DNA from: Utricularia gibba
Lineage: Eukaryota; Streptophyta; Magnoliopsida; Lamiales; Lentibulariaceae
DNA: 64,000 nt
Reading direction: 5' to 3'
Assembly (NCBI GenBank): GCA_002189035.1
Contig: NEEC01000004.1
Span: 3,782,001 to 3,846,000, forward strand
The position numbers and the translations under genes were made by a program. This document shows, one piece after another, positions 1 to 22,980 of this stretch; positions within the stretch are counted from its first letter, which is position 1; the number at the start of each line of letters is the position of its first letter. The notes beneath the pieces are model-generated. The model worked only from the letters and a program-made list of their open reading frames with translations. It ran no database searches and was not told the origin of the DNA.

Positions 1-1050
1 GCGTGGAGGCGAAACCACTCCAATGCAGGAGCATTTACAGCGAAAAATCTTCTGCTCTTGGTGTCAATTTCTGTGATCTTTATTTTTCTTTATCTATCAA
101 CTCAGTCTGCTAAAGACCTGAAGCTAGTTCACAACAGTACCCATGAAGAAACAGTCTTGTTAAGACCCATTAACCCATTCAATTGCCACATGGCACCACA
201 AGCCCACCCAGTCTTCGCCAACATTGTTGAGGGACTCAAGTTCCCTTTTCTATATTCTCTTTCGGACTTTGGGAATCTGCCGGATAAACCCCACAAGAAC
301 ATCGTGAGGATGCTCAAGGGGAAGCCTTTTAGGAGACCTGATATATCTGCGACAGTGCAGGAGCTGTTGGAGAAGATGAAGGCAGAAAACAGACAAGGGA
401 TTTTCGTGGATGTTGGTGCAAATGTTGGAATGGCAAGCTTTGCCGCTGCGGTTATGGGATTCAAGGTGCTGGCTTTTGAGCCTGTTCAGGATAACCTGCA
501 GAGGATCTGCGATGGAATATATCTAAATCGAGTCGCGGAATTGGTGCAAGTTTTCGAAGCTGTGGCTTCTGACAGTGCAGGGAACATCACATTCCATAAG
601 GTATTTCTGTAACCTTGATGCCCTTGGTGACTTCTTTATGTGTGCATTGCTTTGAATTGTGAAAGAGTGTCGTTGTGGTGTATCTAGTTGGTTGGTCGGC
701 TCGACAACAGCGCTGTCTCAGCAGCCGGAGCCAAGATGGCTTTCAAGTCGAACGAAGAGATCGCAGTGGAGGTTCGATCCATTCGTCTAGATGAAGTAAT
801 CCAAGACTCCGAGCCTGTGCTCCTTCTCAAGATAGATGTTCAGGGATGGGAGTATCATGTCCTGAATGGCGCATCAAAGCTACTGTCAAGAAAAAATGGC
901 GCCCCTTACTTGATCTACGAGGAAGACGAGCGCTTGCTGCAAGCAAGCAACAGCAGCTCCCAACAGATACGCCAGTTTCTCAGCTCTTTAGGCTACAACC
1001 AGTGCACACAACGTGGCACTGATGCACATTGCACAAAATCAGTCGACTGA
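1..1050 (+). CDS. FkbM-family methyltransferase, 3' part (cut by window start)
   Basis: Two exons are visible, 1-600 and 688-1050, joined by an 87-bp GT-AG intron in phase 0. The reading frame is open to base 1, so the true start lies upstream. Near the N-terminal side of what is visible there is a hydrophobic segment (about 58-105), which suggests a type II membrane anchor, probably of the secretory pathway. The S-adenosylmethionine-binding motif FVDVGANVG lies at about 405-430, followed by AFEP at about 475. Exon 2 carries LLKIDVQGWEYHVLNGA, the second conserved block of the FkbM fold. The substrate cannot be told from sequence: FkbM relatives O-methylate small molecules and sugars. No break is seen in the visible part. 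Confidence 0.85.
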
Positions 1051-1174: not shown

Positions 1175-1180
1175 TTTATT
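1175..1180 (-). terminator. Polyadenylation signal AATAAA of the defensin-like gene
   Basis: AATAAA on the minus strand (TTTATT on plus), about 49 nt past the stop codon of the defensin-like gene. The position fits a plant near-upstream element. Confidence 0.5.
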
Positions 1181-1228: not shown

Positions 1229-1564
1229 TCACTCGGAATTGCATTCGTAGTTGCAGTAACACATAGGAGCTTGAGTAGGGAGACTATCACAGTAGCCTCG
1301 CCCATCGGGGGAATGAAGGTCCAAGCATTTGTGAATGCAGTCGTCTTCGGATACGCACATTCCTAATCCAATCGTACATTTCCCCATTCTCTTGTCCGTG
1401 TTCTCGGCATTCGCAACATCTGCAGGAACAAAAACAAGAAGGATTTCTCATCGCTGCTCCTATGCGTGTCCAGTTCTCAATTTCAAAGACGCTCCCAACT
1501 CACCAGCAGCACACAGGAGAGCGAGGAGGAGGAAGACGAGTGCTGAGGTAGAAACTCTGGCCAT
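1229..1564 (-). CDS. Defensin-like (DEFL/LCR-type) secreted cysteine-rich peptide
   Basis: This two-exon gene is too short and too spliced to show as one long ORF. Exon 1 is 1564-1504 (61 nt, phase 1), intron 1503-1420 with GTGAGT donor and TTCCTGCAG acceptor, exon 2 is 1419-1229 ending in TGA. The total is 252 nt, or 83 residues. Residues 1-20 form a classic signal peptide with a leucine-rich core; the intron sits right at its end, as is usual for plant defensin genes. The mature part has eight cysteines spaced C-x6-C-x5-C-x3-C-x11-C-x9-C-x1-C-x3-C. It contains the CxxxC and CxC pairs of the cysteine-stabilised alpha-beta fold, plus a GYC gamma-core-like triplet at Cys5. A TATA box lies about 45 nt upstream and an AATAAA about 49 nt downstream, so the unit looks complete. 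Antimicrobial or signalling roles are both known in the family, and neither can be chosen here. Confidence 0.82.
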
Positions 1565-1602: not shown

Positions 1603-1615
1603 CCTCTTTTTATAG
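1603..1615 (-). promoter_or_regulatory. TATA box of the defensin-like gene
   Basis: The minus strand reads CTATAAAAAGAGG, starting about 50 nt before the ATG at 1564. This predicts a very short 5' leader of about 20 nt. Confidence 0.55.
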
Positions 1616-1649: not shown

Positions 1650-3370
1650 CACGATTAACTTAAGAATTTCGTAGGATTGTAAAAAGGATTCTTCTCTCTT
1701 CCAGATTTACACTATTCCGTCAACCTTAATTAAATAAATAGTGAGAATTTTCGAGGATTATTGGGTCAATTATTTGACCTAATGAATTTTCGTTTGATAA
1801 TACAAAAATGTTTTTTTGTATTAAATAAACACATTAGTCCTATGTTTGGTTATAAGTAGATTATGAATTAAATAATAATATTATTATTATTTATTTCTTA
1901 AACCATATTGAAATATAAATTTATGTATCATATGTGTTTCAATAATCTCATAGTTTGAAAATGTAACATTACTATACTTACTATAAAAGAATTTTCACTT
2001 TAACTATTGTTGTTATTCTCTCTCTCTCTTTTATTAAAAAATTATTTGTTTGTTATCAATCTTTCAAAATTCTATTCAATGTTAAAAGTAAAATAAAAAT
2101 TCATTTTTTAAAATTTTAATTATAGATATTTTGATAATATTTATATAACATTGCATATTCAACTTGCCAAAAAAAAAACTTAATTAATAGTTTTTTTATC
2201 AAATTCAATTATAAACTTTTATAATAAATATTTGAAAATTTAATATTTATGTAGATAAATATTTGTATTGTTTGGAAATGACGAAGTATAGAAGCAAAAA
2301 CAGGGAAGTGTCGATGGCTATTCGATATTTGGAAGTATCAATAAACAAATATTAATCTAATAATATATATTATAACAAAATTTACGTAAGATTTATATTG
2401 TTTTAAATTTTAAACTTTTAATTTATTTAGCATTTAACATAAATGATGATAATTCGACAAGTATATAAAAATCGTCAAAATAGTAAAATAAGATTATATT
2501 CATAGAAAATTATTATTAATTTTTTTTTGAAAACAATGACTCAAAAAATCGAAAACAAAACAAAAGTTTTGTTTTAAAAATAATAAAAAAATGATTTTGG
2601 ATCTAAAATCCACCTTATTTAAAACTTGTTGCTATTTATGTGTGTGAACTTTGAATATTAACTTGATTGTACAAGTTTTAGAGGTATTATTTTAAAATAG
2701 TACTACTCAATAATCGTAATAATACCATCTTTCATTTAATGAAATTATAGAATTAATCTCCACCACAATAACCATTTCACCTCTTGTGATAATTTGTATT
2801 TCTATTATATTAAAACCTAATATCTACACATCACATCTTATAGATAGATTAAACAAAATATATTTTATCAATCATGTTTGATTGAATTTTTTTATTTAAT
2901 TTTAAATTGGGTTTAAAAACACAATCCAATTAAAATTATGTATTATATACATTTTCAAAATAAATTTTCGAAAAACAAAAATGAGAAGTAAAATAAGAAA
3001 TAAGAATAAAATGGTGTTTGTAATTTGAAAAAAAGATTCCATAATGGGAAATGATTTTAAAATAATATATAAATATAATTTCACAAAATATATTTGACTT
3101 TCAACTCTTGAAAACCCTATAAATCAAAAAATTATAAATTAATTTATTAAAATGAATTGAAATAATGAAGAAAAATGACATTATTGAAAAAAATTTAGTA
3201 ATAAATAAATAACATTATCATTTTAAATTCATTTAATATTTTTTGAATGAAAATTATATTTTTTATTTAAAAATTAAGAAATATATATGCTATGTAGAAT
3301 TATTAATTTATTATTTGGATAATGATGAATAAGAATAAAAATATTCACACAGCATAGCCTAGCTTTTCAC
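1650..3370. other. AT-rich intergenic spacer
   Basis: Very AT-rich DNA with poly-A/T runs and no ORF with family resemblance. A short CT repeat lies near 2018-2030. I see no gene or RNA here. The G+C content rises again at about 3360, which marks the promoter/leader of the peroxidase gene. Confidence 0.6.
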
Positions 3371-3625: not shown

Positions 3626-4718
3626 ATGGCCAGCTCAACGCAGCCTCAATCCATCCACGAGTTCACTGTTAAGGTATCGCTCCGGTGATCTGGGTTTTCG
3701 TAGATCCCCGTTAAAAACTGTTTTGGCTTTTAGTTTCATGTTTGTATGCTTCCTTCAGAACGATCTTTCCGGTGATGAGGGGAAAATTGGGCCTTTTTGA
3801 TTGGTGTGTTGAGTGTGATCGTTGCTTTTGTTTCAGGATGCTAAGGGAACTGACGTTAATTTGGGTGTTTACAAGGGAAAAGTTCTGTTGATTGTAAATG
3901 TTGCGTCTCAATGGTAAGGTTCAAATTCGGATCATGCCTATCTGGAGAACCATTTTCTGGTTATAGTTCCCAAATGAGATTGCCTATGTGTTGATTTGCC
4001 GCTGCAACTCTGTATCATCTTTAATTCTCCAACTTTCAAAATTTTTCTGAGAAGCTACTTCTACTGCTGCAGTGGCCTCACCAACTCAAATTATACTGAA
4101 TTGACAGAGCTGTACCAGAAATACAAGGATCAAGGTTGGAGTCTGCATCCACTTTCTTTTACCTCTGTTTAGAAACGGAAGGGTTTACTGTCTTAATTGT
4201 TCCTGAAATGATGATTCAAAGAGTTGCTTGTCGTTTCCCGTTCCAGGTTTGGAGATCCTTGCATTTCCCTGCAATCAGTTCGGCTCACAGGAGCCTGGCT
4301 CTAATGAAGAAATTCAACAATTTGTTTGTACTCGCTTCAAGGCCGAATATCCCATATTTGACAAGGTCTGATTGCTCTTGACGATGATACCGTACCTATC
4401 ATGTATGAAAACTTATCCTAAAACATGTTGTAGGTTGATGTAAATGGAGCCAATGCATCTCCCCTGTACAAATATATGAAGTCTATTAAGGGAGGCCTTT
4501 TTGGTGACAACATAAAATGGAACTTCTCCAAGTTTCTCGTCGACAAAAATGGCAGAGTTGTTGAACGCTACGCTCCTACCACATCTCCCTTGAGCATAGA
4601 GGTAAACATATTTCACTGCATGAATCAATCCTTTCCCTACATGAACAATCGATCACTGTTTGCTTCATGTCTCTCGCTTCTGCAGAAGGACATTAAGAAG
4701 CTTCTTGCCCAGGAGTAG
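3626..4718 (+). CDS. GPX: Phospholipid-hydroperoxide glutathione peroxidase (thioredoxin-dependent type)
   Basis: Six exons, 3626-3673, 3837-3913, 4073-4134, 4247-4365, 4434-4601 and 4686-4718, all with GT-AG borders, give 507 nt or 168 residues, the normal length for the short plant forms. It reduces lipid and other hydroperoxides, with thioredoxin as the usual donor in plants. The catalytic Cys42 lies in NVASQCGLTNSNY and is split by intron 2 (TG|T). The catalytic Gln77 lies in the FGSQEPG block, Trp131/Asn132 lie in KWNF, and the resolving Cys90 lies in FVCTRF. The residue at the selenocysteine position is cysteine, as in all plants. No transit peptide is seen before MASS, so a cytosolic or secretory-surface form is likely. 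Reading frame and splice sites are intact. The isoform number cannot be assigned. Confidence 0.95.
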
Positions 4719-5914: not shown

Positions 5915-6514
5915 TTAGCAAGGAAGCAAAAATCCAACCTTGAATGAGTCACAAACAAAATGACAATTGATGTCTAAGTACTTCATTCTCTCTTGGAATA
6001 CAAGATTTTTGGTAATGTGAAGAGTAGATTGACTATCACACCACAAATTCACTGGCTGTGGAAAAGATATGCCAAAGTCTTGTGCGAGGTAAGAAATCCA
6101 TAGCAGCTCTATAGAGGCTACTCCAAGGCAAAGGTATTCAGCCTCTATGGATGAGCACGACACATTGGGTTGTTTTTTGGTATGCGAGATTAAACTTGCC
6201 CCCATAAATACACAATAGCTACTAATAGAGTGCTTGGTATCAACACAGGCACCCCAATCTACATCTGCATAAGCTGCAAAAGGGAGAGTTGTGGAGGTCA
6301 AAGGTGAACTTGGAAGTGGTTCACTTGGGTAAAATAAACCAATATTATCACTGCCAAATAAATAAGAAAGAGCCCTGCGAGTTACATCCCAGTGAGCAGC
6401 TTTAGGTGATTGTGTGAATTGACTTAGTTGTTGCATAACAAATGCTAAGTTTAGTGTGGTAAAGTTTAAGTAGAGCAAGCGACCTATCAACCGTTGGTAA
6501 TTCCCAACATCCAT
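5915..6514 (-). pseudogene. Copia RNase H / RT C-terminal fragment
   Basis: A 199-codon open stretch with copia RNase H features: YQRLIGRLLYL, then AAYADVDWGACVDTKHSISSY, SSIEAEYLCL and WCDSQSTLHITKN with a KYLDINCHFVCD end. These match the D-E-D RNase H core and the end of copia pol. Upstream frames to about 6780 still show RT-like LGPMSFFLGVNI, so the polyprotein is broken. It belongs to copia element 1. Confidence 0.85.
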
Positions 6515-20067: not shown

Positions 20068-22980
20068 TAGGGGTGGAAATGGATCGGATCAATTGGATAA
20101 TCCGGTCCAACCAATTTAATTGGATTGGATATGGATTATAATATTAATTATTCACATTGGTTTTGGTTTTGAAATGTATAATCCAATTTGGTTTTGAATG
20201 GTTTTGGATTACTTATTGTAAATCCAATCTGACCCATTTAATCCAATCTTTTTAAGTAAATAAATAAATATAATAAAAATAATCAAATATCAAATCAATC
20301 AGTATCATTAATTATAATACACTTTTTCCATTTTTCACTTTTCCAGTGACATTGAAGAGATTGAAAACAATATATTTACTTAAAAAAACCCTTCTTCCTC
20401 CTCCACCATGTGACGATTTTTTCAGAAAATGTCCAAGGAACAAGTTGTAAGAGGTTGCTCTAATGATTTACCAGGTAAGAATAATACAATATATTCAACT
20501 TTAAAATAAATCTTATATCTGTATTTTGCTTATCTTTTTAGTTTACTTATGGATATCTATTGTGGTGTTTTATTCTATTGTATTTACTAGGTGTTGATAT
20601 GAGTAATGTGGTTGAGAATGAAGAGATTCATTCTACTGATTTTACTGAAATTTTGGAAAATGAATCTGATAGTTCAAAGGCAAGGAAAAGAAAGAGACTT
20701 TTTTATTCAGAGATTTGGAAATACTATGAGTTAGTACAAGAAAAGGATAAAGTGGACAAAGCTAAATGCAAATATTGTGGGAAAATATATAAAGCAAGTA
20801 TAAATAGTGGCACAACAAATCTGAGAAATCATTATGAGAAATGCCTAGGACGTAAATGCAAGGATGTTGGACAATTACTTTTGAGTAAAAATGACTCATT
20901 AGTTGGCATAAGAAATGCAGCATTCAGTCAAGCCAAATTCAGAGATTTGTTAGCTAAAGCTATTGTTAAACATGAACTTCCATTTTTATTTGTGGAGTAT
21001 GAAGGTATTCGTGACATTTTTGATTATTTGCAACCAGATATAAGACATATATGCAGAAAGACAGCTAGAAGTGATGTTATGGATTTATTTCATAATGAGG
21101 GTAAGAAGCTTGCAGTTGAACTAAGGGATTGTCCAGGAAGAATTTGTTTAACTAGTGATTTGTGGACTTCGATCGTTTCTGATGGTTACTTAGCTTTGAC
21201 AATACATTACATTGATTCTAATTGGATGATGCAGAAACGAATACTTAGTTTTGCTTTTATGGCACCTCCTCACAGTGGATATTGTTTGGCAGAGAAAATA
21301 TTTAGTTTGCTAGCTCATTGGCGAATTGATAAGAAAGTGTTTACTATAACTTTGGATAATGCTTTTGCAAATGATGTGTTGGCTCAAGAGTTAAGGGTTA
21401 GGTTTCATTTTGGAAGATGTCATCTTATCAGTGAAGGTGATTTCTTACATGTTCGTTGTTATACACATATTATAAATTTGATTGTTCAAGAAGGGTTGAA
21501 AGATATTGATGCTTCTATTAATAATATCAGGGAATGTGCAAAATATGTGAAAGGTTCTCAGGTAAGAAAGAAAAGATTTATAGAATGTGTTTCAATATGT
21601 GATCTTGATCAAAAACATAGTTTGAGACAAGATGTATGTACAAGATGGAATTCTACATACATGATGCTATCATGTGCTTTGTATTTTCGGCGTGCATTTG
21701 AACATTTGAGTTTGGTAGATTCAAATTTCAAATATTGTCCTACCAATGATGAATGGGAGAAAGATGAAAAAATATGTGAGCTACTTCAAGTTTTCAATGA
21801 AGCTACCCATATTGTTTCTGCTATTAAGACTCCAACATCTCACTTATACTTTGCTTTGGTTTTCAAGATTAAGATGAAACTGATGAACGTATTGAAGAGT
21901 CCAGTTGAGTTTATGAGGAGAATGGCCATTAAAATGTACTCAAAGTTTGAAAAGTATTGGAATGAATGTCATACACTTTTGGATGTTGCAGTGGTATTTG
22001 ACCCAAGATACAAATTTCAATTTGTTGAGTGGTGTTTTTCAGCATTTAATGGGGATCATCATTCCGTAGAGTGTCAAAAGATAAAAGAAAAACTATACTT
22101 GATTTATCAAGAGTATGCTTCTTCAGATTCTCAAGAAAAGAGTTCTACACGAACTAGTGGAGATGTTTCTCTACAACCCATTGATATGAGTTTCAATAAT
22201 GATACAATAGATATATTTAAGGTATTAGTTTTTATATTTCATTTTAAAATTATTTTATTGTATGTATTCTTTTATCATCTAACAATTGTTATATTATTTA
22301 GGCATTTGATTGTTTTGATGCAAGTGAAGGTAGACAAAGGCTTCAAAAAAATCAGTTAGAACTTTACTTAGATGAGCCGAGAATAGAGAGATCTACTAAA
22401 ATTGATCTATTGGCTTTTTGGAAAGGTTACGAAATGAGGTATCCACAATTGTCTCAAATGGCAAGAGACATGCTTTCTATTCCAGTGTCTAGTGCTGCAT
22501 CAGAGTCAGCTTTTAGCATGGGAGGGAGAATATTAGATGAATATCGAAGTGCAATGAGTGCAGATACTGTCGAAGCTTTGGTGTGCTGTAAAGATTGGTT
22601 ATTGAAAGATAATGGTATTTAATATTTTTATTAATACAATTTAAATTATATATTAACATGTTTTCATTCATTTTATTACAGATTCCACAAGTTCTCATAT
22701 GGAAGAACTAGATGATTATACAAAGATCATTTTGGAGATATTGAATGAATGAAGCTACAATTAGAATGATTGAAGCTATGAATTTATGTATTTTATTTTG
22801 AATGCAAATATGCATTTTTTAATTTGGTTTGGATTTAGTTTTAGACATATTTTTTGGATCGGATGTGGTTTCAATGTCAAGACTTTTTTTGGTTTTGGAT
22901 TGGTTTTGGATATAAATATTTTTATTGGTTTGGTTTGAATTTACCATAATCCGATTCAATCTGGCCCATTTCCACCCCTA
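20068..22980 (+). mobile_element. hAT (Ac-like) DNA transposon, apparently autonomous
   Basis: 2,913 bp with terminal inverted repeats TAGGGGTGGAAATGG (15 bp, perfect) and an 8-bp duplication gttgttga. Subterminal regions on both sides are crowded with GGTTTTGG(AT) and AATCCAAT motifs, which are candidate transposase-binding sites. It carries one gene, a transposase with no internal stop after splicing. It is inserted between the RT and RNase H domains of copia element 2, and is therefore younger than that element. Confidence 0.92.
20429..22622 (+). CDS. hAT transposase (BED zinc finger, RNase-H-like, hATC dimerisation)
   Basis: Proposed exons 20429-20474, 20591-22221 and 22302-22622 (GT-AG) give 665 residues without a stop. 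The first 46-nt exon is less certain; without it, translation can start at ATG 20599 in exon 2. In order: a BED-type zinc finger (KCKYCGKIYKA...LRNHYEKC, about residues 80-110), the first catalytic Asp in CLTSDLWTS, the second in TITLDNAFAND, CTRWNSTY (the RW motif), and a C-terminal hATC domain with LLAFWKGYEMRYPQLSQMA and the SSAASESAFS motif holding the catalytic Glu. The intron of 80 bp before the hATC part is AT-rich. This enzyme would cut and paste the element itself. Domesticated hAT proteins lack intact TIRs around them, so this is read as a transposon gene. Confidence 0.9.

What the first reader, a model, noticed from the sequence alone, without database searches (positions are those of the whole stretch)
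1229..1564. Compact, complete defensin-like gene hidden between larger genes
The gene is only 336 bp with one 84-bp intron and was assembled from two short exons. TATA box, signal peptide, intron at the signal-peptide border, eight cysteines with CxxxC and CxC pairs, and AATAAA all fall in the right places. The loop between Cys4 and Cys5 (11 residues) and a mature peptide rich in acidic residues differ from classical antifungal defensins, so it may be a signalling-type DEFL.
Basis: partly seen in the sequence, partly recalled or inferred. Interest (0 to 1): 0.7.

Follow-up and report, generated by a model that had tools for sequence, protein, structure and literature searches.

The report
Acidic defensin-like peptide gene, bladderwort
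This is a small, apparently intact plant gene for a secreted, disulfide-locked, acidic defensin-like peptide, almost certainly in a bladderwort; it is an ordinary new member of a large known peptide superfamily, probably not a classical fungus-killing defensin.

Summary
[quoted passage not shown] No 8-Cys defensin frame appeared in 1,500 shuffles of the window or in 200 kb of other DNA from this genome. Five other defensin/DEFL genes here with a clear donor share the phase-1 intron in the signal peptide. A single-sequence AlphaFold2 model gives beta-alpha-beta-beta and its best solved matches are plant defensins, although only one of five models was confident. It is single copy here. COX1 carries the double cysteine reported for Utricularia, so the host is almost certainly a bladderwort, probably U. 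gibba. 'DEFL' is right. 'Signalling-type' is plausible but unproven: pI 4.7 and a gamma-core without Arg or Lys argue against antifungal action. Two cautions: the Pfam hit (PF25052) rests on signal peptide and Cys spacing only (three of six Cys-preserving shuffles also passed its cut-off), and the spacing and acidity fall within published ranges for plant DEFLs. New member of a known kind; low interest. Expression is untested.

The parts
1504..1564 (-). Exon 1 coding part: MARVSTSALVFLLLALLCAA + first base of the Asp codon (61 nt, phase-1 end)
1420..1503 (-). Intron, 84 bp, GT-AG, phase 1, inside the signal-peptide coding region
   Evidence: same phase and place in five other defensin/DEFL genes of this genome with a clear donor
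1229..1419 (-). Exon 2: end of signal peptide (DVANA) and whole mature peptide ENTDKRMGKCTIGLGMCVSEDDCIHKCLDLHSPDGRGYCDSLPTQAPMCYCNYECNSE, stop TGA
1609..1614 (-). TATA box (TATAAA), 50 bp before ATG; start site inferred about 1590-1580, so a short 5' UTR
   Evidence: start site is inference
1175..1180 (-). AATAAA poly(A) signal about 50 bp after the stop
58..1050 (+). Convergent neighbour (context, not part of the gene): FkbM-type methyltransferase gene, two exons read, ends 178 bp from the DEFL stop
   Evidence: 6.9e-14 for the second exon; its paralogue on C412 has no DEFL beside it
3626..4718 (+). Divergent neighbour upstream (context, not part of the gene): glutathione peroxidase gene, six exons, Cys at the active site
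   Evidence: GSHPx 1.4e-43

Best explanation
A functional-looking single-copy plant DEFL gene. An 83-aa precursor is made; the signal peptide is removed at ANA|EN in the ER; [quoted passage not shown] a 58-residue acidic peptide is secreted to the apoplast. Because it is strongly acidic (net -5) and has no cationic gamma-core, it most likely acts as a ligand for a plant receptor or another protein (signalling or reproductive type) rather than by disrupting microbial membranes. Shown here: gene structure, Cys scaffold, predicted fold, charge. Inferred: expression, cleavage, disulfide pairing, secretion, and the non-antimicrobial role. About 0.93 that it is a DEFL gene, about 0.5 that it is mainly a signalling/ligand peptide; the score below is for the combined statement.
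For: Exact reading frame and splice sites. No chance occurrence in 1,500 shuffles or in 200 kb of other DNA. Single copy, open, in genome-wide searches. Phase-1 intron in the signal peptide shared with three classical and two six-Cys DEFLs that have a clear donor. alpha-core GMCVSEDDC and gamma-core GYCDSLPTQAPMC present. Model pLDDT 81.6, beta-alpha-beta-beta; structural matches led by PDFL2.1 Z 6.2, RsAFP1 5.9, OsAFP1 5.7, NaD1 5.6. Three non-Cys residues (G before Cys2, P and G before Cys5) shared by all six own-genome sequences aligned. With cysteines fixed, alignment to the six-Cys DEFL at C2:4539551 exceeds shuffles (z 3.8, p 0.0015, best of six tests). Acidity: pI 4.7 against 9.0-9.7 in the genome's classical defensins; published link between pI under 6 and absence of antifungal activity among four peptides (PMC7557933).
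Against: No transcript, peptide or sister-species data. Only one of five AlphaFold2 models was confident, the other four had mean pLDDT 41-51, and Z 5-6 is moderate. Residue-level similarity to the classical defensins is weak once cysteines are fixed (p 0.05-0.6). The Pfam PF25052 score is not specific. Acidic DEFLs can have other roles, such as metal binding.
Confidence: 0.5

Rival explanations
1. Defence peptide: a secreted antimicrobial or anti-herbivore defensin whose charge happens to be negative, acting on microbes or small animals in or around the plant.
For: Defensin fold and both alpha- and gamma-core motifs. Of nine Arabidopsis PDFLs, two were tested in vitro and both were strongly antifungal, and most overexpression lines gained Fusarium resistance (PMC8460643); at least one of the nine has a pI near 6 (6.02).
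Against: Net -5, pI 4.7, no Arg/Lys between Cys5 and Cys6; in a small set, defensins with pI under 6 lacked antifungal activity, and loop 5 is described as a key determinant (PMC7557933).
Confidence: 0.27
2. Metal-handling peptide of the CAL1 / AtPDF2.5 kind, binding metal ions through thiols or acidic residues and exporting them.
For: Nearest solved chain by sequence (E 0.27, not significant) and by Foldseek (E 0.035) is rice OsAFP1/CAL1; many acidic side chains.
Against: Both matches are weak and are to the general defensin fold; only two His, so not a histidine-rich defensin (six or more His, PMC7557933).
Confidence: 0.1
3. Not a working gene: a decaying duplicate or an unexpressed frame that still looks intact.
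For: No close paralogue and no comparative evidence of constraint could be obtained; no expression data.
Against: Every needed signal is intact: splice sites, TATA box, poly(A) signal, signal peptide and all eight cysteines, with no stop; shuffled sequence never yields even the mature frame.
Confidence: 0.06

Closest known systems
Plant 8-cysteine defensin-like (DEFL) peptides, Silverstein CRP classification (broad classical motif)
   Same: Signal peptide, one small intron in the signal-peptide coding part, 8 Cys within CX{4,25}CX{2,12}CX{3,4}CX{3,17}CX{4,32}CXCX{1,6}C (PMC8198727), CS-alpha-beta fold predicted
   Different: Nothing outside published ranges; CRP subgroup could not be assigned
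Classical plant defensins (Gamma-thionin, PF00304), including those of this genome (C409 x2, C98 x2, C2:1422292)
   Same: Phase-1 signal-peptide intron in the three with a clear donor; Cx5Cx3C...CxCx3C core; GxC at Cys2; P-x-G before Cys5
   Different: Loop 1 six instead of ten, loop 4 eleven instead of nine, loop 5 nine instead of six; net -5 instead of +5 to +8; Pfam score 16.2, below the 25.1 cut-off
Tandem six-Cys DEFLs of the same genome (C2:4538376, C2:4539551)
   Same: Closest residue-level kin found is C2:4539551 (p 0.0015 with Cys fixed); also not cationic (net -1), phase-1 intron
   Different: They lack Cys1 and Cys8; apparent GC-AG intron
Arabidopsis PDFL2.1 (CRP0240 group, PDB 2mz0)
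   Same: Best structural match, Z 6.2; signal peptide, small intron, CS-alpha-beta (PMC8460643)
   Different: Six cysteines; 18% identity over the structural alignment

Membership tests
Plant DEFL superfamily (8-Cys type) | Eight cysteines in the published broad spacing | tested here: met
   Loops 6-5-3-11-9-1-3 against the motif quoted in PMC8198727; pattern hit
Plant DEFL superfamily (8-Cys type) | N-terminal signal peptide with a cleavage site before the Cys-rich domain | tested here: met
   MARVSTSALVFLLLALLCAADVANA|EN: hydrophobic core and AxA site by reading; no SignalP was available
Plant DEFL superfamily (8-Cys type) | Small intron interrupting the signal-peptide coding region | tested here: met
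   84 bp, phase 1, as in five other DEFL genes here with a clear donor
Plant DEFL superfamily (8-Cys type) | Cysteine-stabilised alpha-beta fold | tested here: met
   AF2 beta-alpha-beta-beta, pLDDT 81.6 for the best of five models, the other four poor; VIA matches led by 17 plant defensins. A prediction; disulfide pairing not measured
Plant DEFL superfamily (8-Cys type) | Expressed and secreted | not testable with these tools
   No transcript or proteome data
Pfam PF25052 AtDEF-like | Score over the curated cut-off, by residues and not only by Cys spacing | tested here: inconclusive
   26.7 against 25 bits, but 3 of 6 Cys-preserving shuffles scored 27.3-32.5, and the mature peptide alone 16.1; the hit does not discriminate
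Classical defensin PF00304 Gamma-thionin | Score over the curated cut-off | tested here: not met
   16.2-17.6 against 25.1 bits
SLR1-BP PF07333 (pollen coat protein type) | Score over the curated cut-off | tested here: not met
   18.0-18.9 against 22.7 bits
Antifungal defensin | Cationic, with Arg/Lys in the gamma-core | tested here: not met
   Net -5; gamma-core GYCDSLPTQAPMC
Signalling DEFL (LURE, SCR, ES4, ESF1 kind) | Receptor or channel target and tissue-specific expression | not testable with these tools
   No expression or binding data

The most novel reading that the evidence does not exclude
A bladderwort-lineage DEFL that acts as a reproductive ligand, for instance in pollen-tube guidance or reception, in a genus whose female gametophyte grows out of the ovule (compare Torenia, where DEFL LUREs attract pollen tubes; PMC8199428); or a trap-specific apoplastic peptide. 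Nothing here excludes it and nothing shows it.
Probability: 0.08. Interest if true: 0.5.

Novelty: new member of a known kind. Interest (0 to 1): 0.15.

Why it matters
Small DEFL genes are easily missed by gene finders, and this genome seems to keep few of them: seven other defensin or DEFL places were found here (a lower bound, because the search is loose), against 317 DEFL genes reported in Arabidopsis (PMC8460643). A single-copy, acidic, intact DEFL in a reduced genome is a convenient knock-out or expression target for asking what non-antimicrobial DEFLs do. That value is practical rather than surprising.

Tried and rejected
1) Using the Pfam PF25052 hit as proof of subfamily: rejected, because Cys-preserving shuffles score as well. 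2) A close or whole-genome-duplication paralogue: none by protein or DNA; the FkbM paralogue on C412 has no DEFL beside it. 3) Alternative splice models: the others use poor donors or acceptors or destroy the signal peptide. 4) Direct homology to classical defensins beyond the cysteines: weak. 6) No published defensin study of Utricularia was found in the paper library. 7) A weak PF07333 place on C411:409587 is not a cysteine-complete DEFL. 8) A histidine-rich metal-binding defensin: only two His.

Full report
What was claimed.

Check of the observation. Reading the minus strand and enumerating in-frame splice choices gives exon 1 at 1564-1504, an intron at 1503-1420 (84 bp, G|GTGAGT ... TTTTTGTTCCTGCAG, phase 1) and exon 2 at 1419-1229. 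The 83-aa product is MARVSTSALVFLLLALLCAADVANAENTDKRMGKCTIGLGMCVSEDDCIHKCLDLHSPDGRGYCDSLPTQAPMCYCNYECNSE. TATAAA lies 50 bp before the ATG and AATAAA about 50 bp after the stop. Exons are GC-richer (0.57, 0.48) than the far upstream spacer (0.18).

Chance. Three patterns for an 8-Cys defensin frame, from loose to strict, hit the window once, at this gene, and never in 1,500 dinucleotide shuffles of the whole 64 kb, both strands. In twenty other 10-kb pieces of the same genome there is no hit either, also with the published broad motif. Homology alone would not have found it: in a genome-wide scan with the Gamma-thionin model it comes only eleventh, at E 1.0.

Organism. The held genome has 100.1 Mb in 516 contigs. 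Its mitochondrial COX1 reads LLPPSLLLLCCSALVEVG; two contiguous cysteines in COX1 are reported for Utricularia and some Genlisea (PMC3141634). With the size and long contigs this points to Utricularia gibba, for which a long-read assembly with contig N50 3.4 Mb is published (PMC5793159). The species name is inference.

Relatives in the genome. The gene is single copy. There are five other places above the Gamma-thionin cut-off, in pairs on C409 and C98 plus one on C2, and a tandem pair of six-Cys DEFLs at C2:4538376 and C2:4539551. Three classical and the two six-Cys genes show a clear first-exon donor, and in all five, as in the window gene, it leaves phase 1 near the end of the signal peptide; for the other two classical places the automatic model was not usable. 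An alignment of six members keeps G before Cys2 and P-x-G before Cys5 besides the core cysteines. With the cysteines fixed and the rest shuffled, the similarity to the six-Cys gene at C2:4539551 is significant (p 0.0015, six comparisons made) and that to the classical ones is weak (p 0.05-0.6). So the window gene is a divergent member of the same superfamily.

Family models. Pfam gives PF25052 AtDEF-like at 26.7 bits, cut-off 25. As a control I scanned six copies of the precursor in which the non-Cys residues of the mature part were shuffled: three scored 27.3-32.5 bits, and the real mature part alone scores 16.1. That model therefore recognises a signal peptide followed by cysteines at this spacing, and cannot serve as proof of a subfamily. 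The weak Gamma-thionin and SLR1-BP scores (about 16-19 bits, below cut-offs) were approached in only one of the six shuffles, at lower score, so they carry a little real residue signal.

Fold. AlphaFold2 on the 52-residue exon-2 frame without an alignment gave mean pLDDT 81.6 for its best model with the order strand-helix-strand-strand; the other four models were poor (41-51). Foldseek finds plant defensins first (OsAFP1, PhD1; E 0.035-0.08), and VIA-align ranks PDFL2.1 (Z 6.2), RsAFP1 (5.9), OsAFP1, VvK1, TPP3, NaD1 and others at the top, followed by scorpion toxins of the same fold. No single hit is strong, but plant defensins fill the first seventeen rows.

Mechanism. The mature peptide has net charge -5 and pI 4.7, against +5 to +8 and pI 9.0-9.7 for the genome's own classical defensins, which carry GFRRR or similar in the gamma-core; the window peptide has DSLPTQAPM there. 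In a published set of four histidine-rich defensins the two with pI under 6 lacked antifungal activity, and loop 5 is named as a key determinant (PMC7557933). A receptor- or protein-binding role is therefore the more likely one (about 0.5), with defence (0.27) and metal handling (0.1) as rivals. All of this is inference from charge and family; no expression data could be consulted.

What is and is not unusual. Compared with own classical defensins, loop 1 is four residues shorter, loop 4 two longer and loop 5 three longer. But all loops lie in the published broad motif and two of nine expressed tomato DEFLs are acidic (PMC8198727). The gene is an ordinary new member of a known kind.

Neighbourhood. 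An FkbM-domain gene converges on it and a glutathione peroxidase gene lies upstream in the opposite direction across about 2 kb of very AT-rich DNA. Nothing suggests functional linkage.

Noticed in passing
L003 1300-1638 and L009 1295-1635 (G000:C2:4538376, 4539551): Tandem pair of six-Cys DEFL genes that lack Cys1 and Cys8 and appear to use GC-AG first introns (AG|GCAAC).
   Followed up: partly
L025 (G000:C515:183547-185854): Mitochondrial COX1 with the double cysteine (LLLLCC) reported for Utricularia, and an intron whose reading frame continues from the first exon and looks like a homing endonuclease.
   Followed up: partly
Pfam model PF25052, tested with peptides derived from window 1229-1564: The AtDEF-like model passes its curated cut-off with Cys-preserving shuffled peptides behind a real signal peptide (3 of 6), so its cut-off seems too permissive.
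   Followed up: partly
L008 1327-1623 (G000:C98:2579989): Fifth classical defensin place: the part with Cys1 and the part with Cys2-Cys8 lie in different frames near a run of G, so it is either a pseudogene or an assembly indel.
   Followed up: no
window 20560-22359: hAT-type transposase frame (BED zinc finger plus RNase-H fold), open over 599 aa.
   Followed up: no
window 5915-6514: Fragment on the minus strand that reads like a Copia-type polyprotein end (RNase H region); no Pfam match at E 0.001.
   Followed up: no
window 1700-3300: Spacer upstream of the DEFL with only 18% G+C, far below the rest of the window.
   Followed up: no
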